NCBI RefSeq assembly: GCF_003568865.1
Contig: NZ_CP031115.1
Location: 1,860,001 to 1,924,000, forward strand
DNA from: Rubrobacter indicoceani
Lineage (GTDB): Bacteria; Actinomycetota; Rubrobacteria; Rubrobacterales; Rubrobacteraceae
Direction of reading: 5' to 3'
Length of the DNA stretch: 64,000 nucleotides
Within the stretch, counting starts at the first letter, position 1; each line of letters opens with the position of its first letter. Below the pieces are notes generated by a model. The model ran no database searches. It had not been told where the DNA came from and worked only from the letters and a program-made list of their open reading frames with translations. Shown piece after piece: positions 1,911 through 14,073 of this stretch. The translations under genes and the position numbers were made by a program.

Positions 1911-2095
1911 CTCGTCCTCCTCGTCCGTGGGTTGTAGCGGGCTTCGAGGAGGGCGGCGCGTTCTCTCGCCGCCTGCGTCGCGGCTTGCCAGTCGCGTCTA
2001 CGGATGGCGTCGCGCTCGGCGAGGATAAGGCTTGCTGTGCCGACGGGGGCGTACGACGGGTCTGGTGTCTGCTTTTCTTTTTTCATGGACATCAC
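1907..2095 (-). CDS. Small charged protein coupled to the primase
   Basis: 62 aa, rich in Lys, Arg, Ala and Glu, with a predicted helix around residues 24-52 (AERDAIRRRDWQAATQAARE). No family is recognised. It is supported mainly by its position: its stop overlaps the start of the primase gene as ATGA, and it lies in the same minus-strand run as the 454-aa gene and the lexA-like gene. The first codon is GTG at 2093-2095; ATG codons follow at residues 2 and 4 and no clear SD decides between them. It may be a small replication accessory factor, which is inference. Confidence 0.5.
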   Translation of the reverse strand: MMSMKKEKQTPDPSYAPVGTASLILAERDAIRRRDWQAATQAARERAALLEARYNPRTRRTR

Positions 2096-2119
2096 GGTAG
2101 ATTGTCGGCTTTGTTTGCA

Positions 2120-2155
2120 GTACCGGAATTGGGCGGGGCGCGAAATTCCGGGTAC
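2120..2155. repeat. 36-bp inverted repeat, copy 1 (matches 13393-13428)
   Basis: The left end GTACCGGAAT and the right end ATTCCGGGTAC are inverted relative to each other apart from one extra C. The same arms, at the same total length of 36 bp, occur at 13393-13428, while the centre differs. Copy 1 lies in the gap between the 454-aa gene and the 62-aa gene. Conserved arms with a drifting centre suggest a protein-binding or structured-RNA site. Confidence 0.65.
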
Positions 2156-2179
2156 GTGAGGAGGCGTCCTCAGGCGGGT

Positions 2180-3544
2180 TCAGGTCCGATGCCTCTGTTC
2201 TTCTTCGACCTGCTCCAGAGCGGTCTCGTAGGTGAGGTCCGAGGCTTCGGCGACGGCTTCGGCTTCGCGATGAGTGTTGCTCATTGCCTGCCAGCGGGCG
2301 ATGTCTGCTTTCATGGACTCGGCATGGAGGATCCAGCCTTCTTCTCCGAGGGCGGCGTAAAGGAGCTTGCGCCCGCGCCCGACCGTTTTTCTTGCGGTGG
2401 GGTGATCTCCCTTGTACGAGATGTCTTTCGGGGGCGGTATGCCGAGTCTTTCACCGATCTCCCGGTACGTCAGGCCGACTACGTCCCGGAGTACGACGGA
2501 CTCTATGTCGCGTCCGGCGGTACGGTGCGACGGGACCGCACCTTTTGCGGGCGTTCCATACTCGACGTAGTTGAGGGTTTTGCTGGTGGTGTCGAGGAGG
2601 CTGTTTATGTGCGAGCAGGCGTTCGAGATGAGGCCGATGCGGTCCTCGCGGGTCAGGTCGTCGAAGTCGCTCCGGTGATGGCGCAGGAGTAGAAGGACGT
2701 AGTCGAGGGGAGCGGGGCTTCCCAGCTTCTGAAGTTTCTTGCGGAACTCGCGGGGGTGTTCCGACATCGCTTTTGTCCAGGTCTCCCTGAAGCTCTGGCC
2801 CAGGCCGGGCAGCAGGTTCGGAAGCACTTCCCGAAGCAGCGGTATGTCTATCTCGCGGCCTTCGAGGCAGGTCACGGCGCAGAAGATGGCGTTGTCGGTC
2901 TTCAGGGGCCTGTCGGTGATGGTCGGTTGGCGGTATCCGAGGTGAGTCCGGGAGCCTTCGAGGTCGAGCCAGAGGGTCTGCCGACTGTTTTCGAGGTGCA
3001 CGGGGTAGGACTCGCCGTAGAGCGGGAGCGGCCTCGGCTTCCCGGAGAGTTGACCGGCCTGCTTTTTGAGCGGGAGGTCGGACGCCTCGCGTGTTCCGTA
3101 GTATCCGATCCTGAGCAGTTCTTCGATCCACTCATAGAAGTGCTGGGGGAGATCCGTGGCGGCGCAGGCCATCCCACCGTAGAGATCTTCCCTGTACCCC
3201 TCCATGTCCCCGTCCCAGGGCGGAAGGTCCCAGGGGTCCTCCGGACCGACGCTCGGCGGAAGCACCGTTTCCGTCCAGCCGATCCGAAAGAAGCCGTCTC
3301 GCTCACAGGGGGTCATCGAGCCGATAACTCCTTCAAGCTCCGGGAAACCACCGAGAGCGCGACCCCGCTCGAAGCGGTCCGCCACCTCCGCCCGGAAGTG
3401 CTCGTCCTGGCTTACGCGCTCCGCGAATGACCTTCCGTACGCCTCCAGAGCCGGTCCGAAAGCGGGGCCGAAGAGTCCCTTGAGTTCCTCCAGCAACCCT
3501 CGCCGACGATCCTCTTTGTGTCTGTCGTGTTGCATCTCCTCCAT
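2180..3544 (-). CDS. Hypothetical protein with C-terminal sigma-like HTH
   Basis: 454 aa. Residues 1-340 match nothing I recognise; they are acidic and Trp/Pro-rich around 85-115. Residues 345-400 (ESVVLRDVVGLTYREIGERL, then a GRGRK segment) resemble a sigma-70 region-4 / LuxR-type helix-turn-helix, so the protein probably binds DNA. The ATG at 3544 follows GGGGGAGAGGA; a second ATG three codons on also has a purine-rich run before it. The gene sits between the lexA-like gene and the primase on the same strand with short gaps, which suggests control of element replication or transcription. A replication-initiator role is an alternative. Confidence 0.7.
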   Translation of the reverse strand: MEEMQHDRHKEDRRRGLLEELKGLFGPAFGPALEAYGRSFAERVSQDEHFRAEVADRFERGRALGGFPELEGVIGSMTPCERDGFFRIGWTETVLPPSVGPEDPWDLPPWDGDMEGYREDLYGGMACAATDLPQHFYEWIEELLRIGYYGTREASDLPLKKQAGQLSGKPRPLPLYGESYPVHLENSRQTLWLDLEGSRTHLGYRQPTITDRPLKTDNAIFCAVTCLEGREIDIPLLREVLPNLLPGLGQSFRETWTKAMSEHPREFRKKLQKLGSPAPLDYVLLLLRHHRSDFDDLTREDRIGLISNACSHINSLLDTTSKTLNYVEYGTPAKGAVPSHRTAGRDIESVVLRDVVGLTYREIGERLGIPPPKDISYKGDHPTARKTVGRGRKLLYAALGEEGWILHAESMKADIARWQAMSNTHREAEAVAEASDLTYETALEQVEEEQRHRT

Positions 3545-3610
3545 TCCTCTCCCCCGTTCGAGGTGCGCGAAGACCGAGCGTGCAGCGCCTCTTTCACTAC
3601 CAGCCTGTTT

Positions 3611-4243
3611 TTAACGACTACGCGGCGGATGCACCACGTACACCACCCGGCCCTGCACCTTTACGTCCCCAGCATCCACGACTATGTCTTCGTGGTCTCC
3701 ATTCTCCGGCCTGAGGCGAACGTTCTCGCCCTCCCGGAACAATCGCTTGACGGTCACCTCGTCTCCGTTTCCGATGAGCGCGGCGACGACGGTTCCGTCG
3801 GGTGGGTCTTCGTCCTTCTCTATTATCAGGAGATCCCCATCTGCTATGTGGGCGCCGATCATAGACTCCCCAACCACCCGTAGCAGATACCTCTCTCTGC
3901 CCGAACGCGAACCGAGCAGATCCTGCGCGAGCGAATACGCCTCGTCCCCCAAAGCGACCGCCTCCAGCCCGCGCCCGGCGGCGATGCGACCCAGAAGGGG
4001 CATCTCCCCCGCCGCCTCCCAGCCCCGCTCAGTGAGTCGGATGTCGCGGGCGCGTCCTCCGCCGCGACGCTCTATGAGGCCGTCCTCTTCGAGCTGCCGA
4101 AGATACTTGTAAGCTGTCTGAGAGCTGCTCAGGCCGACGGCCTCCCCGACCTCGCGCACGCTCGGCGAACCGTCGCCTTCGCCAAAGCAGCGCGCAAGGT
4201 ACTTCAGCACTTCCATACGCCTCTCAAAGTTCTTACGCACCAT
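3611..4243 (-). CDS. LexA-like repressor (S24 autocleaving)
   Basis: 210 aa, the usual LexA length. The N-terminal winged HTH spans about residues 8-60 (SVREVGEAVGLSSSQTAYKY). The C-terminal S24 peptidase has the Ala89-Gly90 cleavage site in IAAGRGLEA, the catalytic serine S127 in GESM and the lysine K166 in VTVKRL, so autocleavage should be possible. The start ATG is preceded by GGAGGT at 6 nt. Its promoter carries a CAAAC-N4-GTTTG operator over the -35, and the same arrangement sits before the TcmP operon, so it probably represses itself and that operon and releases both upon DNA damage. Because it lies inside a mobile element it is probably an element regulator rather than the host LexA. 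Confidence 0.85.
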   Translation of the reverse strand: MVRKNFERRMEVLKYLARCFGEGDGSPSVREVGEAVGLSSSQTAYKYLRQLEEDGLIERRGGGRARDIRLTERGWEAAGEMPLLGRIAAGRGLEAVALGDEAYSLAQDLLGSRSGRERYLLRVVGESMIGAHIADGDLLIIEKDEDPPDGTVVAALIGNGDEVTVKRLFREGENVRLRPENGDHEDIVVDAGDVKVQGRVVYVVHPPRSR

Positions 4244-4278
4244 CGTGGTACCTCCACAATGAACATCACCTGAGAAGC

Positions 4279-4319
4279 ACCTTAGCGCAAGCTACGGCTT
4301 ATTGCAAACTGGTGTTTGC
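4279..4319 (-). promoter_or_regulatory. Promoter and operator of the lexA-like gene
   Basis: On the minus strand: -35 TTGCAA (4302-4307), 17-bp spacer, -10 TAAGGT (4279-4284). The palindrome GCAAAC-N4-GTTTGC at 4304-4319 overlaps the -35. It resembles the Gram-positive LexA box CGAAC-N4-GTTCG with one changed base per arm. The copy at 6085-6125 has the same elements at the same spacings. Confidence 0.75.
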
Positions 4320-4345
4320 TTTAGGATGATTCTTCTGGAGGTCTT

Positions 4346-5251
4346 TTAAGGTTTCAGAATATGGTTCGCTATCTTTACTGCAGTCGGCGCGCCCACAGGG
4401 TTGGCTGCTGCGAAGCACAGCAAGTAGAGAGGGACGTTTGTGGAGTTCTTAAGTGGCAGGGGCTTCTCTGCTACGCCGGGAAATATGGTTTTGAGACGTT
4501 TCACAAAGAAAGCACCGATGCTGTCGAAGTTCGCTTGCTTTTCGAGTACGGCTTCTTCGTTATCGAAGAGCATAAGAGCATCGGACTCTTTCTCGGGCGT
4601 TCTGTAGAATGCTTCTCTCCAGCTTTCGGTGCCGAACATTCTGGTAAGACGTTCAGCGTGGGCGGCTTCTGGCAGGCGTTTTCTGGTCAGGAGACGATTT
4701 ACGGCCTGACCGAGCGGAAAGAGGAGCCAGAGATCCACAGCTTTGGTCCGGGCGATGGCTTCTATGGTAGCCCAGTCTACTTGCATGCCATAAGGATCTA
4801 GGAACACGACAGCTCTGTTGCTTTTCCAGTTGGTGTTCCGGCACCATTTCTGTAAGAAGTCGTTGGCGTCTGCGACCTCGATCGTAATCCTGTCGGCTAG
4901 ATCGGGGAACTCATGTCTGAGTCTGTCTAGAGAAGCAGCGTGTTCGCGACTCCTATCTATGAACACATAGTTATCGAATTGGTTCTCTTGCCTGAGCGCA
5001 ACGTATGCGCTTCCCTCCTTGAGATAGTTGGTGTCGTCATCTTCAAGAGCATCTTCAAAGAGCGAGCCTTCTACGCGGTCCTCGGCTACTGCTGATGCTA
5101 TGCGTCCGGTTCCGGCGAAAGCGTCCAGATAGTAGGTTCCGAGCTTCGAGGCGGTTTCGTTGCGCGTAAAGATCGTCATGTACGCCTCGAGATACTTGTC
5201 CACACGTCTGAGCTTGTCTTCAGTCCACGGTCCTCCAAACGCGTGTTCCAT
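4346..5251 (-). CDS. tcmP: Three-Cys-motif partner protein TcmP
   Basis: 301 aa. TcmP proteins are encoded beside three-Cys-motif (Gp37/Gp68) proteins, as here: the partner ends 15 bp upstream. The fold looks like a methyltransferase-type Rossmann domain, with DAFAGTGR at 43-50 and a DPYG motif at 152-155 (VVFLDPYGMQVDW), like the DPPY of N6-adenine methyltransferases. The N-terminal GPWTEDKLRRVDKYLEAY is characteristic of the family. The biochemical role of TcmP is not established; nucleic-acid modification or phage defence is inference. The operon starts at a promoter that shares its operator with the lexA-like gene. Confidence 0.85.
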   Translation of the reverse strand: MEHAFGGPWTEDKLRRVDKYLEAYMTIFTRNETASKLGTYYLDAFAGTGRIASAVAEDRVEGSLFEDALEDDDTNYLKEGSAYVALRQENQFDNYVFIDRSREHAASLDRLRHEFPDLADRITIEVADANDFLQKWCRNTNWKSNRAVVFLDPYGMQVDWATIEAIARTKAVDLWLLFPLGQAVNRLLTRKRLPEAAHAERLTRMFGTESWREAFYRTPEKESDALMLFDNEEAVLEKQANFDSIGAFFVKRLKTIFPGVAEKPLPLKNSTNVPLYLLCFAAANPVGAPTAVKIANHILKP

Positions 5252-5266
5252 GAGTGTATAACCCTT

Positions 5267-6007
5267 TCAGCCTGTGAAGACGCTCATCCACCGTTCGGTG
5301 TGAGCGAGATATGCTCGAGGCATCTCGTCGTAGGTGCGTCCGTCGAGTTCGCGGCCTTTGGCTTTCGGGCGTATTCCGCCCCACTGTTTGAAGAAGAACG
5401 CACTGTCGGCCTCGTGTGTCTGCTCGCGTATGTCTTTTACCCATTGGGCTTCTATCGGGCGATGTCTGGGACCGGACTCGCCGCCGACGATCACCCAGTG
5501 GATGCCACCTAAGTCGAGGTCCAGAGGTCCGAGTAGCGGCTCACACGACAGGAAACGAACCGCCGCAGGCACCCGCCTCAGATAATCCACCCGGTAGGCG
5601 TAGTCCTGGTTCTCGACTGAGACGCCCATCCATACGTTCTCCGGCCAGGGGAGGTCGTCGGAGAGTTCGACGAGACGCTCGTGTCGCTTGGTGAGGATCT
5701 GGAACACATGGCTGGGACATTCTTCCATGACCTTGAAGATCTCCTGCAGAAACTCCAGCGGCATGCGCTCGTGGAAGAGATCGCTCATGGAGTTGACGAA
5801 CACCCGGCTCGGCTTGCGCCAACGTCTCGGCTCGTCCAGCCGTCCGGGATGCAGGGTGAAATCGAAGCCGTTCTCGAAGTGGTTGTGAAAACGCTTTGTA
5901 AGAGCCTCTGCATAGCAGTTTTTGCAACCGGGGCTGACCTTATTGCAGCCCGTAGTCGGGTTCCAGGTCTTATCCGTCCACTCTATCGCCGTGCTGGTAC
6001 TCGACAC
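5267..6007 (-). CDS. Phage Gp37/Gp68 family three-Cys-motif protein (DUF5131)
   Basis: 246 aa from the GTG at 6005-6007, chosen because GGGAGG lies 6 nt upstream and the family N-terminus (AIEWTDKTWNPTTGC) follows at once. The open frame extends 25 codons further upstream without an SD. The cysteines C21, C28 and C31 form CX6CX2CYA, reminiscent of a radical-SAM iron-sulphur site. LTKRHERL and VIVGGESGPRHRPI are also typical of the family. It forms an operon with tcmP. Known members come mainly from phages and mobile elements; the substrate is unknown. Confidence 0.87.
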   Translation of the reverse strand: MSSTSTAIEWTDKTWNPTTGCNKVSPGCKNCYAEALTKRFHNHFENGFDFTLHPGRLDEPRRWRKPSRVFVNSMSDLFHERMPLEFLQEIFKVMEECPSHVFQILTKRHERLVELSDDLPWPENVWMGVSVENQDYAYRVDYLRRVPAAVRFLSCEPLLGPLDLDLGGIHWVIVGGESGPRHRPIEAQWVKDIREQTHEADSAFFFKQWGGIRPKAKGRELDGRTYDEMPRAYLAHTERWMSVFTG

Positions 6008-6084
6008 CGCTTTCCTCCCAGGTTCCTCATCCCGCAGTAAACACCAAAAGCGAAAGGATTGCGCTCGCTTCCATGCCAACACAT

Positions 6085-6125
6085 ACCTTAGCGTATTTCG
6101 CGCTGTATTACAAACATATGTTTGT
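6085..6125 (-). promoter_or_regulatory. LexA-type operator and promoter of the three-Cys/TcmP operon
   Basis: On the minus strand: -35 TTGTAA (6108-6113), 17-bp spacer, -10 TAAGGT (6085-6090). The 16-bp perfect palindrome ACAAACATATGTTTGT at 6110-6125 overlaps the -35. The order, the spacing and the GCTAAGGT sequence around the -10 repeat those of the lexA-like promoter at 4279-4319. The site also lies about 50 bp upstream of the divergent antitoxin gene and could affect it. Confidence 0.8.
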
Positions 6126-6160
6126 TAATGTTACTTGGACCTTGCCCGGACGATGAGAGG

Positions 6161-6166
6161 TAGAAT
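6161..6166 (+). promoter_or_regulatory. Candidate -10 of the antitoxin-toxin operon, leaderless
   Basis: TAGAAT is followed by 6 nt and then the ATG of the antitoxin, a spacing at which transcription would begin at or very near the start codon. No good -35 is seen at 17 bp (TTGGAC lies 20 bp upstream). Confidence 0.4.
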
Positions 6167-6172
6167 GTTTCC

Positions 6173-6421
6173 ATGGATATGAAGTTGACGTTGCCGGATG
6201 AAGTTTTGAAGGCTCTGGGTGCTGAACCGGAGCGCGGGGTGCTTGAGGGTGTCTTGCTGCTGTTGGTGAGCGAGGGGAAGATGAGCGTGGCTCGGGCGGG
6301 GGAGATCCTGAGCCTCGGGAGTCGCCACGCGGCGATACGCTGGTACACGGGACACGGTCTTCCCTATCCGGACCTCTCCGAGGATGACCTCGCCGACGAC
6401 CTGGACTATGCCTCGTCGTAG
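6173..6421 (+). CDS. UPF0175-like antitoxin
   Basis: 82 aa. The conserved centre (LLLVSEGKMSVARAGEIL, then HAAIRWYTGHGLPYPDLSEDDL) fits the UPF0175 / HTH antitoxin family found before DUF3368 toxins: a short helix-turn-helix followed by a tail that binds the toxin. The DUF3368 gene starts 15 bp downstream. A related but damaged copy lies at 12895-13137. Autoregulation is expected for such pairs but is not shown here. Confidence 0.8.
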   Translation: MDMKLTLPDEVLKALGAEPERGVLEGVLLLLVSEGKMSVARAGEILSLGSRHAAIRWYTGHGLPYPDLSEDDLADDLDYASS

Positions 6422-6436
6422 CGGCTACGCGGTATT

Positions 6437-6952
6437 GTGCCTTCTGGCGTGAACCGCCCCGGTAGAGAAGTCGCTGTCTTCGACACGAGTCCCCTCGTCT
6501 TTCTCGATGTTCTCGGTTACGCGAGTCTGCTCGCGGAGATTCACGTCGTTTTCGTACCTCCGGCGGTGGCGGAGGAGTTGGCGGCTTCACCTGGAGAGCC
6601 GGGGAGTGGAATCCCGGAGGAAGCGTGGGTGGAGGTCAGGGAGCCGGAGGCCGGGATCCTGCGGACGGTCGAGGGTGAGATGACCGAAGGGCGAGGCGAG
6701 AAGGAAGCGATCGCACTCGCCCTGACCCTTGGCGTGCTAGTCGTTCTCGATGACAAGAGAGCGCGAAGGCATGCCCGGCGGATGGGGTTGAGGTTGACAG
6801 GCACGTTGGGTGTACTTCTCAGGCTGCACCGTTTGGGACTCGCTACCCGGAGCCTCGAAGAAGACCTCCGGTTGTTGGAGGAGGCGGATATGCGAATCAC
6901 ACCTGACCTGAAGCGGAGGATCCTCGAAGCCGGTGAAGGCAACTCTCTCTGA
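6437..6952 (+). CDS. DUF3368 PIN-like nuclease toxin
   Basis: 171 aa. DUF3368 proteins are PIN-fold ribonuclease toxins. The first acidic site is D16 in VFDTSPLVFLD; EKEAIALAL and VVLDDKRARRHARRMG supply the later conserved acidic residues, and the helix TGTLGVLLRLHRLGL is typical of the family. The GTG at 6437 begins 15 bp after the antitoxin stop, without a strong SD. It forms an operon with the antitoxin. Its 3' end abuts an excisionase-like remnant on the other strand. Confidence 0.82.
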   Translation: MPSGVNRPGREVAVFDTSPLVFLDVLGYASLLAEIHVVFVPPAVAEELAASPGEPGSGIPEEAWVEVREPEAGILRTVEGEMTEGRGEKEAIALALTLGVLVVLDDKRARRHARRMGLRLTGTLGVLLRLHRLGLATRSLEEDLRLLEEADMRITPDLKRRILEAGEGNSL

Positions 6953-6957
6953 CGGGT

Positions 6958-7053
6958 TGCATCGAGGTAGCTCTGCTTCTGTAACCACCTCTCCAGCTCA
7001 CCTCGATTTACCCGAACCGAGCGGCCTGTTTGGACGGCGGGGCCGTATCCTCC
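6958..7053 (-). pseudogene. Remnant of excisionase-like HTH gene
   Basis: The translation GRSVRVNRGELERWLQKQSY almost repeats the C-terminal half of the intact excisionase-like protein at 13142-13333 (GRSVRVNRKELERWLQQQSY). The N-terminal half is missing, and the frame runs past the usual stop into sequence antisense to the toxin gene. Together with the antitoxin upstream it forms a copy of the antitoxin/excisionase module at 12895-13333. Confidence 0.75.
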
Positions 7054-7263
7054 CGCAGCACGTGAACCGCTCGGAGGGGTGCTTCCTGCGTGGGCGTGCG
7101 GGCCGGAAGATGCAGAAGAAGGGCGGGGTGAGTCTCTCCAGCAAAGGTGGGATCCCGGGCTGCACCCACGTGCCGGCTCGCCGGTCACGAACGGCTGCAC
7201 TACCGCGAGGTCGCTTTCGGGGGCGGCGGACGGACCCGTCCTCGGGTGGGTTTCGGGCTACGG

Positions 7264-9237
7264 CTACGATCTGAAAAGTCGGACCAGCTTTTCGAAGGGA
7301 CCGCTCTTCCTGTCCTTCATAGATGTGCCGAGGAACTCTTCGAGGTGGTCGGCGTAGAAGACGATGACGTTGCCACGGGAGCCCGTAGCGTAGAGGTAGT
7401 CCGGCACGTCGCGTTTTATCTTGTTTATGGTGCCGTGCACGTCGTCCGAGCGCAGCACTATCTTGTCCGCGCTCCTCGTCCACGCCGCAGGATCGTGCGA
7501 CCAGAGCTGCAAGAGCTCCTCGGCGACCCGGTCGTGCTTTCCGTGTCCGTAGCCCTCCATCGTCACCGCCTCGCACCAGGGAGGGAGTTCTTCGCCACCT
7601 GAATGCTCGGAGATTATCCCCGCAAGGGTCGAGGAGGAGAGTTCAAGGAGGTCGAGCGGCTCGTGGAGGTCGTCGCGGACGGTCGGTATCACGCGCTTCA
7701 GGTACTCCCGGTAGAGCGCGGTGCCGAGGTCCCCCTTTATGGCTTTGAGCTTTCTGCGTAGCTCTCGGGCTTCTCCGGTGTGGTCCGGCAGGGAGGCCCC
7801 GGTGTAGATGACGAGGGCGCGCTTTCTGAGCTCGGAGTCGAAGGTGTCCTGCCCGGCGTTCATGGACAGGACGACGCACGGGTACTCCTTTAGCCCGACG
7901 TGGTCGTCCTTTATGAGGGCATCGGCGTGCTGGGAGAAGCGGGTCTTATCCATATCGTCGAAGACGAGCGGGTAGCGACCGTTCTGCTCCATCACCGCCG
8001 GGACGTAACTCTTCGTAAACCAGTCGTTCGGCGGGAACTTGTCCCGGTCGAACATGGAAGAGAGCAGGGTCTTGACGAGCTCGGACTTGCCGCAGTTGCT
8101 TTTGCCGTAGAGAAGTCCGTAGACAGGATAGTCCCACACGTCGTCGCCCCTGGCTATGGCGGCGTTGCGGAGGTCGCAGACGAAGGCCCCGGCGTAGAAC
8201 CAGCTCCAGAAGGTGAAGTAGCCTCGGGCGAGTTTGTCGCTCTGTCCCCTGAACACGCTGTAGCCGTCGAAGTACTGAAGCCAGAAGCGGGCGTCACGGG
8301 CTACGTCTTCTTCCGGGGGGTTGAGATCCAGGGATTTACCCGAGAGTAGAACCTCGCCGGAGTCGAGGTGGAGGCTCATGGACTCCTCGGGGTTCTCCTC
8401 GCGAGTGCGCCAGTTCTCCTTTACGTACCTGACGACCTTGTTGGCGGCGGGGCGGTCTATCTTTGCAACGCCGCCCTTTGCCTGCAGGGTCGAGGCGATA
8501 CCGCCGTAGCGTTTGGGCGGTTTGGCGGCTGCGCGCTGGACTATGGAGGTCTCTGAGGGGGCGTCCTGGATCAGGATGACCTTCGGGTTCTTCGAGTCCG
8601 TTCGGGCCGGGGAGAGGGCGGGGAGGTTCTCCGGGTCGAACTCCCCGTCTATCTGCGCCCGCTCGATGATGGAGGTGGTAGAGCGATCGCGGATGCGCCT
8701 GTAGGCTTCGGAGAAGTGATCCCAGGCCGCCGGGTCGTCGTCGAAGAGGACGTAGCTCTCGTTCTGGACGCCGGAGAAAGCGCGGTCTGAGAAGTTGGCC
8801 GATCCGGTTATGACACGGGTACCCTTCTCTCCTTCCAGAAGAAAGAGCTTCTCGTGCGAGATGATCTCCTGCACCACGTAGAGCTTTATGGCTCCAGAGT
8901 CTATCTTCTCCTTGACGTGGTCCCTGCCTTTCGTAGCTGAGATGAGGTCCCGGATGAGGAGTTCCTGGTAGTACATGTAGGAGGCCATGTCGCCGAGGAT
9001 GTCCGCCCGGCCGAAGACGACCTCCAGGGAGTCCATAGCCTCGGCGGCGCGGTTGACGATGGGCAGGCTGGAGGAGTAGGTAAGGACTTTCAGGGAGGAG
9101 TAGCCGGAGATCAGGTCCTCGAAAGAGCTTCGCTCAAAGCCCTCAAAACGTGCGCGCACGACGCCCAGCTTGCTCACATCGTCGAGCAGGGCGTCCTGAA
9201 ACAGGGGATTCGTGTTTTCCTTGCGCGGTATGGTCAT
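7264..9237 (-). CDS. Phospholipase-D-like nuclease fused to P-loop ATPase
   Basis: 657 aa, last gene of a four-gene minus-strand run. The N-terminal part is a PLD-like nuclease with one HxK motif: H128-E-K130, then GSANFSD at 145-151. Single-motif PLD nucleases such as the NgoFVII type act as dimers. A linker (about 185-310) follows, then a P-loop ATPase: Walker A GKSNCGKS (378-385), Walker B YPLVFDDMD (422-430), and a later SMNAGQDTF segment of the sensor type. The C-terminal 100 residues are unassigned. Fusions of an effector nuclease to an NTPase are typical of anti-phage systems; that role is inference, and I do not recognise this architecture as a named system. Alternatives are a conjugation or DNA-processing enzyme. 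Confidence 0.8.
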   Translation of the reverse strand: MTIPRKENTNPLFQDALLDDVSKLGVVRARFEGFERSSFEDLISGYSSLKVLTYSSSLPIVNRAAEAMDSLEVVFGRADILGDMASYMYYQELLIRDLISATKGRDHVKEKIDSGAIKLYVVQEIISHEKLFLLEGEKGTRVITGSANFSDRAFSGVQNESYVLFDDDPAAWDHFSEAYRRIRDRSTTSIIERAQIDGEFDPENLPALSPARTDSKNPKVILIQDAPSETSIVQRAAAKPPKRYGGIASTLQAKGGVAKIDRPAANKVVRYVKENWRTREENPEESMSLHLDSGEVLLSGKSLDLNPPEEDVARDARFWLQYFDGYSVFRGQSDKLARGYFTFWSWFYAGAFVCDLRNAAIARGDDVWDYPVYGLLYGKSNCGKSELVKTLLSSMFDRDKFPPNDWFTKSYVPAVMEQNGRYPLVFDDMDKTRFSQHADALIKDDHVGLKEYPCVVLSMNAGQDTFDSELRKRALVIYTGASLPDHTGEARELRRKLKAIKGDLGTALYREYLKRVIPTVRDDLHEPLDLLELSSSTLAGIISEHSGGEELPPWCEAVTMEGYGHGKHDRVAEELLQLWSHDPAAWTRSADKIVLRSDDVHGTINKIKRDVPDYLYATGSRGNVIVFYADHLEEFLGTSMKDRKSGPFEKLVRLFRS

Positions 9238-9297
9238 CTTTCGGTCGGTGCTACGGGCTCGCGTATGTTCTCGGACGGGGTAGACGGAAGATTTAGC

Positions 9298-10074
9298 TCA
9301 CCGATAGGTCTTATCCCGGCATCGTATCTGAGACGAGTACTCGATCAAAGAAAAGTGGACTGTCTTGAGTATTCGATCGGTGATCGCCGCGTAGCTGTGG
9401 ACAACAAGAAAACCCGTAAGGGCGGCCAATCCGGATCCGACAAGGAGATCTCGGTAGTCCCCGCTGCTGACCACCGATCCGGCGAGCAAATCCCTGACTA
9501 GTGATTGCAGCAGGAAGAGAAACAAAATCCAGAGAACAGCCGAGATCCACCGCGGTATCTTTAGCCATTCACCCACGCGCTGCTCTCGAACTTTCATGCT
9601 TTCGCGCAGGTCGTCCATATCTTCCTGATCGATAGCTTCGATCTCTTGAAGCTTGCGGCAAATGGCCGCGAGGTCCCGACGCTTTACTCCGGAGTCCGAA
9701 TATACGGACAGAGGCGGAAGGAAGATAAAGGACACAAAGATCAACACCATGCTCCAGTTGAACAAGGACGAATTCAGAACCTCCGCTTGAGTGAAGCCCA
9801 AAACTGCTCCCAGTACGCCGACCAGGATTAGGAGTACTAGATAGAAGAGTGCGAAGCAGACAGTCCAGATCGCGTAGCCAACGGCAACCGCAATAAACCC
9901 CTTTACCAAACACATCAAGGTGCAAGCGATCCGGTACACGAAATCCAGAATCGTCCGGTTACTCTTCTTGCGCCTGAAGAAAAAGGGTAGGACACGGTCT
10001 GCAGCGAATTGGCCGAACAGCACCAACGCCTCTGCGTGCCAAATCAGTTGCTGGGTTCTGTTAAACACACGCAT
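9298..10074 (-). CDS. Integral membrane protein of the PLD-ATPase operon
   Basis: 258 aa from the ATG at 10072-10074; the frame is open further upstream and the true start is unsure because no good SD is seen. There are four or five hydrophobic segments: two closely spaced near residues 50-95, one near 105-125, one near 180-205 and one near 215-235. Between them lies a charged cytoplasmic loop (KRRDLAAICRKLQEIEAIDQ) that may form a coiled coil. No family is recognised. It lies 60 bp upstream of the PLD-ATPase gene and 79 bp after the 233-aa gene, all in the same direction. Membrane proteins paired with effector nucleases are common in defence operons; no function is claimed. Confidence 0.65.
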   Translation of the reverse strand: MRVFNRTQQLIWHAEALVLFGQFAADRVLPFFFRRKKSNRTILDFVYRIACTLMCLVKGFIAVAVGYAIWTVCFALFYLVLLILVGVLGAVLGFTQAEVLNSSLFNWSMVLIFVSFIFLPPLSVYSDSGVKRRDLAAICRKLQEIEAIDQEDMDDLRESMKVREQRVGEWLKIPRWISAVLWILFLFLLQSLVRDLLAGSVVSSGDYRDLLVGSGLAALTGFLVVHSYAAITDRILKTVHFSLIEYSSQIRCRDKTYR

Positions 10075-10153
10075 TCGTAATCCGGTCTTTAGGCTGGGCG
10101 GGCTGACGATATACCAACCCGCCTCCACAAAATTTCGCGGAATGCTCAGCCTG

Positions 10154-10855
10154 CTAGTTGTAGCGATATGGGATGGTGACCTTCGGATCGTTGCGCCAGA
10201 GCCACCCGTAGATCGGGCGCTCCCCCATGTGCGTAGGCCCGCTTGGCTGTTCCGGTGGTGCATCCTGTCCCGGGAGCTTCGTAATGACCGGTACTCCGAT
10301 GTTCATGCCGGGCGCTGCCCACGCAGGTGGAAAGACGACCGTGACGCTCATCTGTGACAGACCGGGGGCAAGAACAAATCCTGCGAGTGGAGCGAAGAAC
10401 TCAACCTCGTAGGAGCGTGGATCTCCATTCACGGGCCTGAGTACCTGACGGGTGTGGAAGCGGAGGACCTGCGAGCCGGAGGGGATGCGTACGTCGGCCA
10501 CCCGGAACTCCTTGATGGCCGCACGAACCTCCTTCATGATCGGCTCCTGGTCGGCCGGGATCTCGCCGATAGTTTTGAGAAGCTCGACAAACTGTTCCCC
10601 CCGACCGTCGCGCTTGCGAAACTCCGTGCGCTTCCCGGTGGAGACGACACGCACCTCCGCGCTCGACTCCTCGGACGGGAAGGGGAGCACGAGCCTCACG
10701 TCCTGCTCCGTGGGATTCTCCACGACAAGGACACCGTTGACGTTCGCTACGTCGTAGGAGTCTTGCGCGAAGCCCCTGTGCGGGGCTATGGACTCGACGT
10801 CCACGCCCAGCACCTGGGAGCGAACTGGGAGATTGATTACGGGACTGAGGGCCAT
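10154..10855 (-). CDS. Hypothetical protein of the PLD-ATPase operon
   Basis: 233 aa, no signal peptide or membrane segment. The pattern of alternating hydrophobic residues suggests a mainly beta fold (for example VANVNGVLVVENPTEQDVRL), with one helix around residues 85-115 and a Pro-rich stretch near 200-210. AAAGGA lies before the ATG. It follows the 57-aa gene by 20 bp and precedes the membrane protein. No family is recognised. Confidence 0.65.
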   Translation of the reverse strand: MALSPVINLPVRSQVLGVDVESIAPHRGFAQDSYDVANVNGVLVVENPTEQDVRLVLPFPSEESSAEVRVVSTGKRTEFRKRDGRGEQFVELLKTIGEIPADQEPIMKEVRAAIKEFRVADVRIPSGSQVLRFHTRQVLRPVNGDPRSYEVEFFAPLAGFVLAPGLSQMSVTVVFPPAWAAPGMNIGVPVITKLPGQDAPPEQPSGPTHMGERPIYGWLWRNDPKVTIPYRYN

Positions 10856-10875
10856 TCCGATTTCCTTTCTTTGGA

Positions 10876-11049
10876 CTATCTACTCCTGAGCATCTTCGAA
10901 AGCGAATTCCCCGTCGCGCCTCGCAGCGTGTCGAGATGGGTGTCCCTCCTCTTCGAAGACAACTCACCATACTTGCGTTCTAGGGTTTCGAGGTGCGTGT
11001 CCGACCTCTTCGCCCGGAATCTACCGTTCTTGTTACGGCTTCTACTCAT
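10876..11049 (-). CDS. Small basic protein, first gene of the PLD-ATPase operon
   Basis: 57 aa, strongly basic, with a partial internal repeat: RSDTHLETLERKYGE followed 19 residues later by RRDTHLDTLRGATGN. The ATG at 11047-11049 is preceded by GGGGGTGAG, a usable SD. It is the first gene after the minus-strand promoter at 11093-11121, and the next gene begins 20 bp downstream. It could be a small regulator, an RNA/DNA-binding protein or an antitoxin-like partner; none of these is shown. Confidence 0.55.
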   Translation of the reverse strand: MSRSRNKNGRFRAKRSDTHLETLERKYGELSSKRRDTHLDTLRGATGNSLSKMLRSR

Positions 11050-11083
11050 GTCTCACCCCCTCTCGGGTATCATCCATATCACA

Positions 11084-11121
11084 GCTATATAGTTTATAGC
11101 AACTATTTGCTATAATCGCAA
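11084..11121. promoter_or_regulatory. Divergent promoters sharing one operator (XRE-ImmA / PLD operon)
   Basis: The perfect palindrome TATAGCAA-CTAT-TTGCTATA lies at 11095-11114, and a third half-site GCTATA at 11084-11089. On the minus strand, -35 TTGCGA (11116-11121) and -10 TATAAA (11093-11098) are 17 bp apart and drive the 57-aa / PLD-ATPase operon. On the plus strand, -10 TATAAT (11111-11116) drives the XRE-ImmA gene. The palindrome fills both promoters, so one bound repressor, most simply the XRE-ImmA protein, would shut both. Confidence 0.78.
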
Positions 11122-11140
11122 GTATCGAGGAGGTGACGAG

Positions 11141-12328
11141 ATGATCACGCAGGAGGAGTTGGGGGGTCGGCTACGCCGGGCGCGTTCGGAAGCGGGTATC
11201 ACGCAGGGGGATGCGGGGCGGGCCGCGGGGCTGGATGATACGGCTATCGCCAAGATAGAGAGAGGCAAGAGGGGTGTTGGGGCGTTGGAGATCAAGCGCC
11301 TGGCTTCCCTGTACGGCATCCCGGTGGATGATCTGCTGGAAGACCCTGTGGCGGAAGGACTCGTTCCTCTCACGGTCGCGCTCCGCTCGGTGGAGGAGGC
11401 ATCTCCTTCCAGAGTCGAGCGGATGAAGCGGCAGATGCAGCGTCTGGTTTCCGACGACAGATGGCTGCGCGAAGGCGACGATGCCAGCGTGGCCTGGGAG
11501 CCTGTAGATTTACACACGATATCCAACGAGCCGGATTACAGGAGAGGGTATCGGCTTGCGGACAAGTTCCGAGCCCGGTACGAGCTGGGCGATTCACCTG
11601 TACCGGACCTTGCGATGCTCGCGGATGAGATCGGGGTGGTGGTCGCCCGAATGCCGCTCGGAGATGTGGGGGCTCCCGACGGTTGCTCCGCCCTGGATCC
11701 CGAGACAGGGTTTGCTTACGTCCTGATCAACAGCGACAAGAGCAGGGTCAGGCGCAGGTTCACCATAGCTCACGAGCTGGGACACCTCGTTTCCGGCCAT
11801 CTGAACCCGGGGGAGGTTGTTCTCGACGAGACGCTGAACGAGAAGAATCCACAGGAGCAGGAAGCCAACGCCTTCGCGGCCGGGTTACTCATGCCCGAGA
11901 GTGGTGTATGCGGCGCGGTCAAAAGGTTGCAGGGCAAGCTGGGAGAAGAGGATCCGGTCGCCTGGATCGTCTGGCTCGCGGATTCGTTCGGCGTTAGTGA
12001 GGAAGCTGCAGCCTACCGTCTTGTGAACCTGAAGTTAGCCAAAGTAGTGGGAGGCAAGACAAGAGAAGCTGTTCGGGAGGTCGCGGAGGATCTCGAAGGT
12101 CAGCGGGAGGCCAGGGCGCGACTAGGATTGTCGCTTGCTATGCGGGACTCCGAGCGAGGTGTCACCGAGGTCGGACCGTCCATGAGGGCGCGCATATCCC
12201 GCGCTCTCGAGGTGGGTGAAATCTCGGTTGATGGAGCGGCGCGAATGCTCCATCTATCTCCGGAAGAGACTGACCGCTGGATAGTTGATTCGGGCATAAG
12301 GCTGGGCGTCGCGGAAGCACCTCTGTAG
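11141..12328 (+). CDS. XRE-family regulator with ImmA/IrrE metallopeptidase domain
   Basis: 395 aa. The N-terminal XRE helix-turn-helix spans about residues 5-62 (LRRARSEAGITQGDAGRAAG). The ImmA/IrrE-type zinc peptidase follows, with FTIAHELGHLVSGH (HELGH at 211-215) and the third ligand in NPQEQEANAFAAGLLMP (about 236-252). The C-terminal 80 residues contain a second possible HTH (MRARISRALEVGEISVDGAA). ImmA peptidases cut repressors to induce mobile elements or stress genes; a fused HTH lets one protein sense and regulate. It is divergent from the PLD-ATPase operon across a shared operator, and the PIN gene follows 14 bp downstream. Confidence 0.88.
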   Translation: MITQEELGGRLRRARSEAGITQGDAGRAAGLDDTAIAKIERGKRGVGALEIKRLASLYGIPVDDLLEDPVAEGLVPLTVALRSVEEASPSRVERMKRQMQRLVSDDRWLREGDDASVAWEPVDLHTISNEPDYRRGYRLADKFRARYELGDSPVPDLAMLADEIGVVVARMPLGDVGAPDGCSALDPETGFAYVLINSDKSRVRRRFTIAHELGHLVSGHLNPGEVVLDETLNEKNPQEQEANAFAAGLLMPESGVCGAVKRLQGKLGEEDPVAWIVWLADSFGVSEEAAAYRLVNLKLAKVVGGKTREAVREVAEDLEGQREARARLGLSLAMRDSERGVTEVGPSMRARISRALEVGEISVDGAARMLHLSPEETDRWIVDSGIRLGVAEAPL

Positions 12329-12342
12329 GCTGACCTGCTCGG

Positions 12343-12885
12343 ATGCTCGCAGGAGTAGATACGAACGTCCTTATGGACTTTCTGCTACTGGATGCAAAGT
12401 CCACGTTGGCGCGAGTTCTCGGCGGTAAAGGATGGACGACGGTGTTCGTGGACGACGAACTATTCGATCCCCGAAGCGGCCGAGGTTTGAGGGTCTCGGA
12501 TGTCTTTCCCTTTATCGAGGTGGACCCTGTGGACGCCAGGTTGCTTCCTCGTATTCGTCGGGACCAGCTCGCAATCGTTGGAGAGCGAAGGGCTGAACTG
12601 GGCAATGCGGCCGGGGAGTCCAGCCTGATCCACGTAGCGATCAAAGACAGAAGCGGCTCGATCGTACTCAGCAACGATCGGCACGCGGTCGGGCTTGGGC
12701 GGCGACGCGGCATTGCCGTAAGGGGAACTCTCTACGTATTACACAGAGCCGTAGCCAGCAATGACTTGACTCTCGAAGACGCCTGGCCCATGTACTGCAA
12801 GCTGCTGGAGGAAGACCGACGCCCACCGCGAATGACGAGAGCGCAACTGGATACGTATCTGTCTTCGGGGGTGGATCCGCGGTAG
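12343..12885 (+). CDS. PIN-domain protein partnered with XRE-ImmA
   Basis: 180 aa. The N-terminal GVDTNVLMDFLLLDA has the first PIN aspartate (D6); ESSLIHVAIKDRSGSIVLSNDRHAV carries the later conserved acidic and Asn-Asp positions. PIN domains are Mg-dependent ribonucleases. It lies 14 bp after the XRE-ImmA gene on the same strand, so the two are probably co-transcribed; pairs of an XRE-ImmA protein and a PIN-like protein behave as toxin-antitoxin-like units in other genomes. The ATG has no strong SD, consistent with coupling. Confidence 0.75.
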   Translation: MLAGVDTNVLMDFLLLDAKSTLARVLGGKGWTTVFVDDELFDPRSGRGLRVSDVFPFIEVDPVDARLLPRIRRDQLAIVGERRAELGNAAGESSLIHVAIKDRSGSIVLSNDRHAVGLGRRRGIAVRGTLYVLHRAVASNDLTLEDAWPMYCKLLEEDRRPPRMTRAQLDTYLSSGVDPR

Positions 12886-12894
12886 GTTCACCGC

Positions 12895-13137
12895 ATGGAT
12901 ACAAAGCTTCACACTACCGGAAGGGGTTTTCTGGGGAAACTGGGACCGGAGCCGGGGCGCGAGGTACTTGAGGGAGTGCTGCTGCTTCTCGTGAGTGAGG
13001 GGAGCATGAGTGTGGCTCGGGCCGGGAAGATCCTGAGTCGTCATGCGGCGATACGCCCTTACACGGGATACGGCCTTCCATATCAGAACCCCACCGACCA
13101 AGACTTCATCGATGACCTGGACCATGCTTTTTCCTGA
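12895..13137 (+). CDS. Damaged paralogue of the UPF0175 antitoxin
   Basis: 80 aa, closely related to the antitoxin at 6173-6421 (shared VLEGVLLLLVSEG and MSVARAG). Two compensating indels scramble residues 6-16: in the neighbouring frame the DNA still encodes TLPEGVF, matching TLPDEVL of the other copy. A 9-bp deletion also removes three residues before HAAIR. No toxin gene follows. The frame is open, but the N-terminal DNA-binding part is altered, so function is doubtful. It lies 9 bp after the PIN gene. Confidence 0.6.
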   Translation: MDTKLHTTGRGFLGKLGPEPGREVLEGVLLLLVSEGSMSVARAGKILSRHAAIRPYTGYGLPYQNPTDQDFIDDLDHAFS

Positions 13138-13141
13138 AGGT

Positions 13142-13333
13142 TCAACGGATCACATCTGAGTAGCTCTGCTGCTGCAGCCACCTCTCCAGTTCTTTACGAT
13201 TCACCCTCACCGAGCGACCTATTCTGACGGCGGGGATCTCACCCGTCGCCACCAGCTCGTAGGCCCGGCTGCGGGCGATGCGTAGCTCTTTTGCGACCTC
13301 CCCCGCCTTCATCCACTCGTGCCTCTCGTCCAC
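13142..13333 (-). CDS. Excisionase-like HTH protein
   Basis: 63 aa from the GTG at 13331-13333, which has GGAG 6 nt upstream; the frame is open further up but without an SD. The sequence WMKAGEVAKELRIARSRAYE, then GEIPAVRIGRSVRVNRKELERWL, is the MerR-like winged helix (HTH_17) of excisionases and of small DNA-binding proteins of mobile elements. It lies about 300 bp inside the tRNA-Val attachment site, where such a gene is expected. A truncated copy lies at 6958-7053. Confidence 0.8.
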   Translation of the reverse strand: MDERHEWMKAGEVAKELRIARSRAYELVATGEIPAVRIGRSVRVNRKELERWLQQQSYSDVIR

Positions 13334-13392
13334 GCCGTACTCCCTTGCTCGCTTGCGGATACGTGGAGGATATGGCGTAGTAGGTGATTCGA

Positions 13393-13428
13393 GTACCGGA
13401 ATCGGACAACCCTCCGAATTCCGGGTAC
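13393..13428. repeat. 36-bp inverted repeat, copy 2 (matches 2120-2155)
   Basis: Same arms and same length as the copy at 2120-2155; the central 14 bp differ. It lies 60 bp upstream of the excisionase-like start and about 210 bp inside the element boundary, so it could be a recombinase or excisionase arm site or a regulatory site. Confidence 0.65.
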
Positions 13429-13637
13429 AGAGGCGCTCTCGTTGCGACCGCGCGGCCCAGGTCATTTCGCTCAAAGAAATCGGACGAAAGCTTCCCGCAG
13501 TGTGCATCAACCGTGCAGCAACCCGACCGGAACACCTTGGTACAGCCTGGCACGCTGAAACCATCTACAAAGCTAAAGTACCTGCAAAACCAAGATAAAC
13601 TGGAACAGGCTGGAACACACCATAATGTATTGTATGT

Positions 13638-13681
13638 CCCTTACAAGGAGGGGGTCGCTGGTTCGAACCCAGCATCGCCCA
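13638..13681 (+). other. attachment site: 3' half of tRNA-Val(TAC)
   Basis: From 13640 the sequence reads as an anticodon loop CTTACAA (anticodon TAC), the 3' stem GGAGG, the variable loop, the T-arm GCTGG-TTCGAAC-CCAGC (13657-13673), the 3' acceptor strand ATCGCCC (13674-13680) and the discriminator A. The 5' half is absent: the bases before the loop do not pair properly with GGAGG. This is the duplicated 3' end of a tRNA gene left by integration; the intact tRNA should lie at the other end of the element. Confidence 0.82.
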
Positions 13682-14073
13682 CTTACGATTTACCGATAAA
13701 TGAACCGACAAAACACAGCGTTTCACGGATCGAACCCGAGAACCCTCAGGCGGGTTGCGGTCCCGTCCGAAGGACCGGCTGTGCAAGGTCGAGAGGTGAG
13801 CAGATCCCCTCAGGAGGTACGAGATCCCCGTTCCGCCGCAGCCCGGCGGGTAGTCATGGGCGGTGATCCGTAAGGGGAGTTCTCACCGGGAGCCGTCCCG
13901 ACCCGGCAGATCTGACCCGAAACCGGCTGGGCCTCTGGTCCCTTTGTTGTGCCGGAGCAGGTAATTTCGGGAGATCGGTCCCGACCTACAGGCACCAGCG
14001 GTCATTTGTGTGAAAATAGACAATCCATCCGGGATCTTTTGAAGTGAGGGCGCAAAGTAGGAGAGGAGTAAGG
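13682..14073. other. Non-coding stretch between attachment site and carboxypeptidase gene
   Basis: About 390 bp. It contains several GC-rich inverted segments but no gene I can support. I compared it by eye with cobalamin, TPP, FMN, glycine and c-di-AMP riboswitch consensus blocks and saw no match. An AT-rich part (about 14010-14040) may hold the promoter of the next gene. Confidence 0.5.

What the first reader, a model, noticed from the sequence alone, without database searches (positions are those of the whole stretch)
7264..12328. Four-gene operon ending in a PLD-ATPase fusion, switched by a divergent XRE-ImmA protein
A 57-aa basic protein, a 233-aa beta-rich protein, a multi-pass membrane protein and a 657-aa PLD-like nuclease/P-loop ATPase are arranged head to tail inside a mobile element. 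Their promoter overlaps that of an XRE-ImmA regulator, and one palindrome (11095-11114) covers both. An effector nuclease with an NTPase, a membrane partner and a cleavage-type regulator is the layout expected of a phage-defence or element-competition system. I do not recognise this gene set as a named system.
Basis: partly seen in the sequence, partly recalled or inferred. Interest (0 to 1): 0.82.

Follow-up and report, generated by a model that had tools for sequence, protein, structure and literature searches.

The report
Defence cargo under toxin-linked protease switch
A mobile stretch of DNA loaded with anti-phage genes carries a cut-yourself repressor paired with a likely toxin, placed head to head with an undescribed set of genes that ends in a likely DNA-cutting helicase; related switches often sit in front of known bacterial immune systems, so this one probably controls another.

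Summary
All four genes, the divergent XRE-ImmA gene and the palindrome are real. They are not one conserved four-gene system. The PLD-ATPase is a sparse, phylum-crossing stand-alone gene: none of 45 fetched stretches holding relatives has the other proteins. Its predicted fold is a BfiI/NgoAVII/SauUSI-type PLD nuclease joined to a ring helicase (nearest SCCmec Cch and SaPI Rep). The 233-aa protein belongs to a separate small family, beside HTH/ImmA genes in 4 of 9 loci (one a remnant).

The XRE-ImmA gene has its own downstream partner, a PIN-like protein. This pair recurs (64%/60% identical) with the same operator core but another divergent operon. Related XRE/ImmA genes face CBASS, Pycsar, Qat, type I restriction or ubiquitin-like operons or candidates in 9 of 15 loci (6 strictly), against 0 of 9 plain XRE controls (p 0.007; strict 0.052). 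The locus lies near the right end of a 40.2-kb tRNA-Val-integrated element carrying DSR2, a type IIG restriction gene and a SIR2 candidate.

So the defence reading is supported by context; "four genes travel together" is refuted. Best reading: a CapH/CapP-like, toxin-linked controller switching an unnamed defence operon. Function is untested.

The parts
7264..9237 (-). PLD nuclease (res. 34-208) - SF3/MCM-like AAA+ helicase (res. ~286-646) fusion, 657 aa
   Evidence: invariant H128,K130,S146,N148 (HKD-type), G383,K384 (Walker A), R473; D427,D428,N460 at 90% or more
9298..10074 (-). multi-pass membrane protein, 258 aa from the likelier start (longest ORF to 10263, 321 aa)
   Evidence: no family match of note; no relative in 59 other genomes
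10154..10855 (-). 233-aa beta-rich protein of a small, sparse, unnamed family
   Evidence: motif GxRxxxxWxWRxDPxxxVxYRY
10876..11049 (-). 57-aa basic protein
   Evidence: no family match; no tblastn match in 45 PLD stretches
11094..11115 (.). palindromic operator, 9-nt arms, at both -10-like hexamers
   Evidence: core GCAACTAYTTGC kept in L075, GCAAN4TTGC also in L064
11141..12328 (+). XRE HTH - ImmA (Peptidase_M78) regulator, 395 aa
   Evidence: M78 3.2e-19, HTH_31 4.1e-12; RmrA 9.7e-28, CapP 1.7e-23, CapH 3.8e-10
12343..12885 (+). PIN-like protein, 180 aa, probable toxin partner of XRE-ImmA
   Evidence: D6, E92, D112 invariant in 5 rows; library support weak (PDC-S70 0.0023; PIN 1o4w 0.095)
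13637..13688 (+). right attachment site: 47-nt exact copy of the tRNA-Val 3' end, 52 nt with one mismatch
   Evidence: left copy at C1:1833398-1833449, outside the window

Best explanation
The stretch is a composite defence cargo, not one four-gene machine. (1) XRE-ImmA with the PIN-like protein forms a toxin-linked controller cassette. The XRE half represses both divergent promoters from the shared palindrome; on a signal (probably single-stranded DNA from phage attack, as for CapP) the ImmA half cleaves the repressor half, opening both operons and freeing the PIN-like nuclease. (2) The opened head-to-head operon makes the 57-aa, 233-aa and membrane proteins and, by read-through, (3) the PLD-helicase, an ATP-driven helicase-nuclease that loads on invading DNA as a ring and cuts it with its PLD domains. 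Shown: genes, operator, a recurring cassette with a different divergent operon, association with known immune operons, defence-rich element, predicted fold of the PLD-helicase. Inferred: repression, cleavage, signal, co-transcription, toxicity, DNA cutting, anti-phage effect.
For: Cassette: XRE-ImmA 64% and PIN 60% identical pair in G020 with the operator core kept and a Ubl-CEHH-E1 operon in place of the window's divergent genes. Head-to-head neighbours of 15 related XRE/ImmA loci: 9 defence-type by PADLOC, 6 of them strict (CBASS x2, Pycsar, Qat, type I R, Ubl-E1); a tenth (L105) faces an AbiGI/AbiEi-like gene beyond a small ORF. XRE-only controls: 0 of 18 ORFs at 9 loci. Fisher p 0.007 for 9 of 15. 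GCAAN4TTGC in the intergenic stretch of 3 of 8 loci read, 2-7 of 2000 shuffles each. At L064 a 26-residue remnant of the 233-aa family lies between XRE-ImmA and the type I R gene. Element cargo: DSR2 3.5e-244, SIR2 PDC-S65 1.9e-192, type IIG RM/DrmMI 1.4e-90, PDC-M18A 2.9e-48, PDC-M41A 1.7e-119. PLD-helicase fold: pLDDT 76; Z 13.4 to Cch; Z 12.2 and 11.8 to SauUSI and NgoAVII R PLD; catalytic residues conserved over 24 rows. Neighbours of some stand-alone homologues: Gabija-like pair, BrxD-like, type II RM. Published precedents: CapH+CapP as controllers of adjacent immune operons (PMC13373217, passages and sections 13-14); ImmA antitoxins paired with PIN-like toxins (PMC10440598, passages).
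Against: Nothing here was measured in cells. That the PLD gene belongs to the divergent operon rests on a 60-nt gap and lack of a terminator-like site there; its composition differs from its upstream neighbour (GC3 0.825 against 0.645) and no clear ribosome site is seen. Five of 15 related loci show no defence gene head to head (L107, L108, L111, L112, L114). The 9 include a candidate family (L113), a partial second gene (L104) and a 3e-10 match (L109). Strict counts are weak: 6 of 15, p 0.052. L064 and L115 came from outside the E-value rule; without them 7 of 13 (p 0.017) and strictly 4 of 13 (p 0.115). Controls had shorter flanks. Several stand-alone PLD loci lie between ordinary genes. The PIN assignment is by motif.
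Confidence: 0.5

Rival explanations
1. Three unrelated modules side by side: an XRE-ImmA/PIN toxin-antitoxin pair acting only for itself (RosmerTA-like), a 57/233/membrane gene group of unknown use, and an independent PLD-helicase defence gene with its own promoter. The shared palindrome serves only the toxin-antitoxin operon.
For: PLD gene has none of these neighbours elsewhere; composition differs; ImmA-PIN toxin-antitoxin pairs are published (PMC10440598, passages); P0005 scores best against RmrA models.
Against: The palindrome lies 44 nt from the start of the 57-aa gene and reaches a -10-like hexamer on its strand; related cassettes often stand head to head with immune operons while XRE-only controls do not; the 233-aa family is beside HTH/ImmA genes in 4 of 9 loci.
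Confidence: 0.33
2. The PLD-helicase is a replication initiator of the mobile element: a nicking enzyme joined to an SF3-type helicase, by analogy with HUH-SF3 Rep proteins.
For: Nearest structures of the ATPase half are SCCmec Cch and SaPIBov1 Rep, helicases of mobile elements; homologues lie on plasmids.
Against: The element has another candidate replication protein, the 842-aa ORF L074 9382-11910 (primase-helicase by my reading only, not searched). Komagataeibacter plasmid pKOB3 carries a separate replication initiator A. Some homologues lie singly in chromosomes between housekeeping genes; none was found in 50,697 phage records or the viral contig scan.
Confidence: 0.1
3. ICEBs1-type ImmR/ImmA lifestyle switch: XRE-ImmA controls excision or transfer of the element rather than defence genes.
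For: ImmA-type proteases control integrase expression in ICEBs1 (cited in PMC10440598, passages); the gene lies in an integrative element.
Against: The integrase-like ORF is about 36 kb away at the other end; no second operator of this spacing in the genome with up to 3 mismatches; none of the divergent genes matches an excision or transfer family.
Confidence: 0.05

Closest known systems
CapH + CapP controllers of CBASS and other immune operons (PMC13373217 passages; Lau et al. 2022 recalled, not read)
   Same: HTH repressor plus ImmA-like metalloprotease beside an immune operon; PADLOC CapP 1.7e-23 and CapH 3.8e-10 on P0005
   Different: HTH and protease fused in one chain, a PIN-like gene 14 nt downstream, and an operon I found no description of
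RosmerTA (RmrA/RmrT) and ImmA-PIN toxin-antitoxin pairs (PMC10440598, passages)
   Same: RmrA 9.7e-28 on P0005; HTH-ImmA protein followed by a small PIN-like protein
   Different: no RmrT model matches P0006; a divergent operon shares the operator
VapKSC (PMC13373217, section 13 read)
   Same: a defence-operon controller type also found as a toxin-antitoxin system with a PIN/VapC nuclease
   Different: kinase and STAS protein instead of XRE-ImmA; there the toxin form and the controller form are described as separate loci
PLD restriction enzymes SauUSI, NgoAVII R, BfiI
   Same: same PLD nuclease fold at the N-terminus (Z 12.2, 11.8, 8.7)
   Different: the motor here is a ring-type SF3/MCM-like AAA+ domain, not the SF2 helicase of SauUSI (SF2 recalled); no sequence match in PDB
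SCCmec Cch / SaPIBov1 Rep helicases
   Same: AAA+ helicase fold, Z 13.4 and 13.3
   Different: no PLD nuclease at their N-terminus (my understanding, not tested); they are replication proteins of their elements

Membership tests
CapH+CapP-type controller | XRE HTH repressor and ImmA/IrrE-like (M78) protease | tested here: met
   M78 3.2e-19; HTH_31 4.1e-12; CapP, CapH models
CapH+CapP-type controller | two separate proteins, protease cleaving a separate repressor | tested here: not met
   one fused 395-aa chain
CapH+CapP-type controller | placed at the promoter of an immune operon | tested here: inconclusive
   head to head with an operon whose immune role is unproven; related loci 9 of 15, strictly 6 of 15
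CapH+CapP-type controller | ssDNA-activated cleavage and derepression | not testable with these tools
   needs biochemistry
RosmerTA | RmrA-type HTH-ImmA antitoxin | tested here: met
   RmrA 9.7e-28 (sequence only)
RosmerTA | RmrT-type toxin | tested here: inconclusive
   no RmrT model matched P0006, only PDC-S70 at 0.0023; RmrT toxins are said to be diverse (PMC10440598, passages)
PIN nuclease | conserved acidic residues | tested here: met
   D6, E92, D112 invariant in 5 rows; that these are the PIN acids is recalled
PIN nuclease | significant match to a PIN family model | tested here: inconclusive
   no Pfam match; PIN structure 1o4w only at 0.095, behind a proteasome match at 0.0023 taken as chance
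PLD (HKD) nuclease | HxK...GSxN motif and fold | tested here: met
   H128,K130,S146,N148 invariant; Z about 12 to PLD-fold proteins; Pfam PLDc_2 26.3 bits against a cut-off of 27
SF3-type/AAA+ helicase | Walker A, Walker B DD, sensor N, arginine, fold | tested here: met
   PF00910 21.6 bits against a cut-off of 21.5

The most novel reading that the evidence does not exclude
XRE-ImmA + PIN is a portable, toxin-armed master switch for bacterial immunity. One self-cleaving antitoxin-repressor keeps both a nuclease toxin and whichever immune operon lies head to head (Pycsar, Qat, Ubl, type I restriction, or here a PLD-helicase operon; CBASS for relatives in which no PIN gene was seen) off from one operator. 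A single ssDNA signal then fires the immune operon first and the suicide toxin as back-up. The operon in this window would be a new immune system found through its switch.
Probability: 0.33. Interest if true: 0.78.

Novelty: new variant of a known kind. Interest (0 to 1): 0.6.

Why it matters
If true, a toxin-antitoxin pair and an immune-operon controller are the same object here, linking two fields that describe them separately, and the switch becomes a handle for finding unknown immune operons: look at what stands head to head with it. The PLD-ring-helicase would be an unnamed, phylum-crossing single-gene nuclease motor, open to direct biochemistry.

Tried and rejected
Conserved four-gene system: rejected. 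Phage origin of the PLD-ATPase: no match in 50,697 phage records, and none of 40 pattern hits in viral contigs was confirmed. PDB by sequence for P0001 and its profile: nothing. Fold of P0003 alone: failed, pLDDT 36, so no fold claim. P0003 family: no Pfam match for 5 of 5 members; a PDB match at 0.71 was ignored. A PHROG SieB match to P0002 at 0.27 and a PADLOC ZacB match to 34 residues of P0001 at 7e-4 were not used. Sigma-70 scan: 0 found against 1.3 expected; terminators 3 against 4.4: uninformative. A common palindrome over the eight intergenic stretches was not seen: best ones differ, and three were not rare among shuffles (27, 127 and 296 of 300). First paper search gave unrelated papers; one search was only looked at as a listing. 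Lau et al. 2022 was not read.

Corrections made on re-check: one search used ORFs of 60 aa or more and so could not see the 57-aa protein, so all five proteins were searched again by tblastn. L105 had been left out as cut off, but its divergent side is readable; it is now counted (n 15, no PADLOC scan, AbiGI/AbiEi-like).

Rows dropped: of the 14 loci, five flagged ImmA were left out of the controls and not added to the test set; weaker loci were not fetched; L100 and L101 look alike and counting them once hardly changes p. Neighbour scan: 20 loci of the 30, 95 neighbours, no control run for it. The 24-row fold alignment left out split or partial genes (L033, L053, L054, L055, L056) and near-duplicates (L044, L046).
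Full report
Check of the observation. The membrane ORF overlaps the 233-aa gene in its longest form; the start at 10074 removes the overlap. The intergenic palindrome is 11094-11115, perfect arms of 9 nt and a 4-nt loop, not matched by any of 300 shuffles and single in the genome with up to three mismatches. TATAAT and TATAAA hexamers lie at its two arms, so one bound repressor could close both sides; no consensus promoter was found.

Where it lies. ARAGORN finds tRNA-Val at C1:1833371-1833444. Its 3' part recurs at window 13637-13688, 47 nt identical, 52 nt with one mismatch. An integrase-like ORF (by my reading) sits beside the tRNA. The element is therefore 40.2 kb, and the finding is near its right end. 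Of 10 hand-picked proteins of the element, six matched PADLOC: DSR2 (3.5e-244), SIR2 PDC-S65 (1.9e-192), type IIG restriction/DrmMI (1.4e-90), PDC-M18A (2.9e-48), a CRISPR-accessory-type model (by my reading of its name) on L074 7096-8103 (1.1e-17) and, inside the window at 4349-5251, PDC-M41A (1.7e-119); four had no match.

The PLD-ATPase. 6 of 60 genomes match, one being the own genome and two being fragments. Plasmid records: 9 of 72,556, in Acetobacter, Komagataeibacter and Thermus; phages: none. The genome-contig scan gave 30 loci, among them Rubrobacter, Chloroflexota, Acidobacteria, Clostridia, Treponema and acetic acid bacteria. In 45 stretches with relatives, some showing the same gene twice and many short, tblastn found no homologue of P0002 to P0006 at 0.01, and the 233-aa profile found none. 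In the annotated plasmids L008 and L012 it is a single gene among toxin-antitoxin genes; in Rubrobacter taiwanensis (L032) and others it lies between ordinary genes (the output was cut). Among 95 neighbours at 20 loci PADLOC found defence models in some: a BrxD-like gene at L030 and a type II RM at L047, and GajA/GajB matches that fit L052, whose two genes resemble GajA and UvrD-type helicases. Of 10 neighbours re-scanned singly, 8 had none.

Its fold. The model from 24 sequences has mean pLDDT 76. The N-terminal part matches PLD-fold proteins (SauUSI Z 12.2, NgoAVII R Z 11.8, BfiI Z 8.7; also FAM83 and polyphosphate kinase). The C-terminal part matches the SCCmec Cch helicase (Z 13.4, rmsd 6.7) and SaPIBov1 Rep (Z 13.3), then MCM and SF3 helicases. 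Foldseek gives the same two groups. Catalytic residues of both halves are invariant or nearly so. It is built like a helicase-nuclease; whether it restricts DNA is not shown.

The 233-aa protein. Relatives: G020 (75%, from residue 56), G041 and G055 (23%) among 60 genomes; G110 and G338 besides among 396; plasmids of Arthrobacter and Paenibacillus. In Arthrobacter the homologue is divergent from an HTH gene and an ImmA-type ORF; in G338 contig C102 it follows an HTH-ImmA pair; in G338 contig C39 a 26-residue remnant lies between XRE-ImmA-PIN and the type I R gene. In the stretches read around the G020, G041, G055, G110 and Paenibacillus copies no such pair was seen. So the link to HTH/ImmA holds in 4 of 9 loci, the window and the remnant counted. 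In none but the window was the PLD gene seen beside it.

The switch. P0005 matches Peptidase_M78 and HTH families and PADLOC RmrA, CapP and CapH models. It is followed at 14 nt by P0006, a PIN-like protein with conserved D6, E92, D112; library support is weak. In G020 the same pair (64% and 60%) lies head to head with DUF2604 Ubl, Metal_CEHH and Prok-E2_C/ThiF genes, and the operator core GCAACTAYTTGC is kept. GCAAN4TTGC also occurs in the L064 intergenic stretch: 3 of 8 stretches, with 2, 4 and 7 of 2000 shuffles showing it. So the cassette recurs with its operator core while the divergent operon differs.

Association test. Fifteen related XRE/ImmA loci were read: all 13 other matches with E under 1e-10 (L075 and L103-L114), the own-genome copy L115, and L064, found through the 233-aa remnant. 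Head to head, by PADLOC or Pfam: type I R (L064, 1.6e-222), Ubl-E1 (L075, BilD 2.5e-25), CBASS (L103, 3.7e-69; L110, 1.7e-161), Pycsar (L106, 1.2e-122), Qat (L115, 1.6e-149): 6 of 15 strict. Adding L109 (BilD 3e-10), L113 (PDC-M48B 1.5e-12) and L104 (second gene, HEC-05 8e-18) gives 9 of 15. L105 faces an AbiGI/AbiEi-like gene (4.4e-5; the name AbiEi for 6y8q is recalled) beyond a small co-directional ORF and is not counted among the nine. None: L107, L108, L111, L112, L114 (L107, L112 and L114 by reading; one gene each of L108 and L111 scanned; L111's is peroxidase-like). Of 7 loci with a PIN-like gene besides the window, 5 face a defence-type gene (L064, L075, L104, L106, L115; not L108, L111); PIN calls there are by reading. 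Control: at 9 XRE-only loci of the same search 0 of 18 divergent ORFs matched PADLOC at 1e-8. Fisher p: 9 of 15, 0.007; 6 of 15, 0.052; without L064 and L115, 7 of 13, 0.017, and strictly 4 of 13, 0.115. The samples are small, related by descent, with hand-picked ORFs against all ORFs and unequal flanks.

Literature. [quoted passage not shown] PMC10440598 (passages): ImmA-type RmrA antitoxins pair with varied toxins, PIN-like ones included. PMC10904395 (passages): ssDNA acts on PprI and CapP. In the listings of searches I saw no paper on an XRE-ImmA-PIN set controlling a divergent immune operon, or on this PLD-ring-helicase; listings were capped, and the library lacks most subscription journals.

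Conclusion. Known parts in a new combination: a fused CapH/CapP-like, RosmerTA-like controller with a PIN-like partner, facing an undescribed operon that includes or adjoins a stand-alone PLD-helicase.

Noticed in passing
own genome C1:1833398 to 1873688 (window 1-13688 is its right end): 40.2-kb integrative element in tRNA-Val carrying DSR2, a SIR2 candidate (PDC-S65), a type IIG restriction gene, PDC-M18A and PDC-M41A.
   Followed up: partly
own genome C1, L115 4908-9743: Second HTH, ImmA, PIN-like gene set, head to head with QatA/QatB in the same genome.
   Followed up: partly
window 6173-7042 and 12895-13235: Diverged direct repeats (77-81%) of a UPF0175-like gene and an excisionase-like HTH piece (names by reading) flank the block with the PLD, divergent and XRE genes.
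   Followed up: no
window 4346-6082: Three-Cys-motif-partner-like protein (name recalled; PDC-M41A) beside a DUF5131 gene.
   Followed up: no
L010 6025-9083 (Thermus oshimai plasmid): PLD and ATPase halves of a homologue lie apart, with a transposase gene between them.
   Followed up: no
L064 7167-7244: 26-residue remnant of the 233-aa family between an XRE-ImmA-PIN set and a type I R gene, as if one divergent operon had replaced another.
   Followed up: partly
L075 7620-10530 and L109 3985-6094: Ubl and ThiF/Prok-E2_C-type genes facing XRE-ImmA genes in two families of the phylum.
   Followed up: partly
L025 3784-7913 (Paenibacillus plasmid): Homologue of the 233-aa protein lies between a DndB gene and a PBECR4-domain gene.
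   Followed up: no
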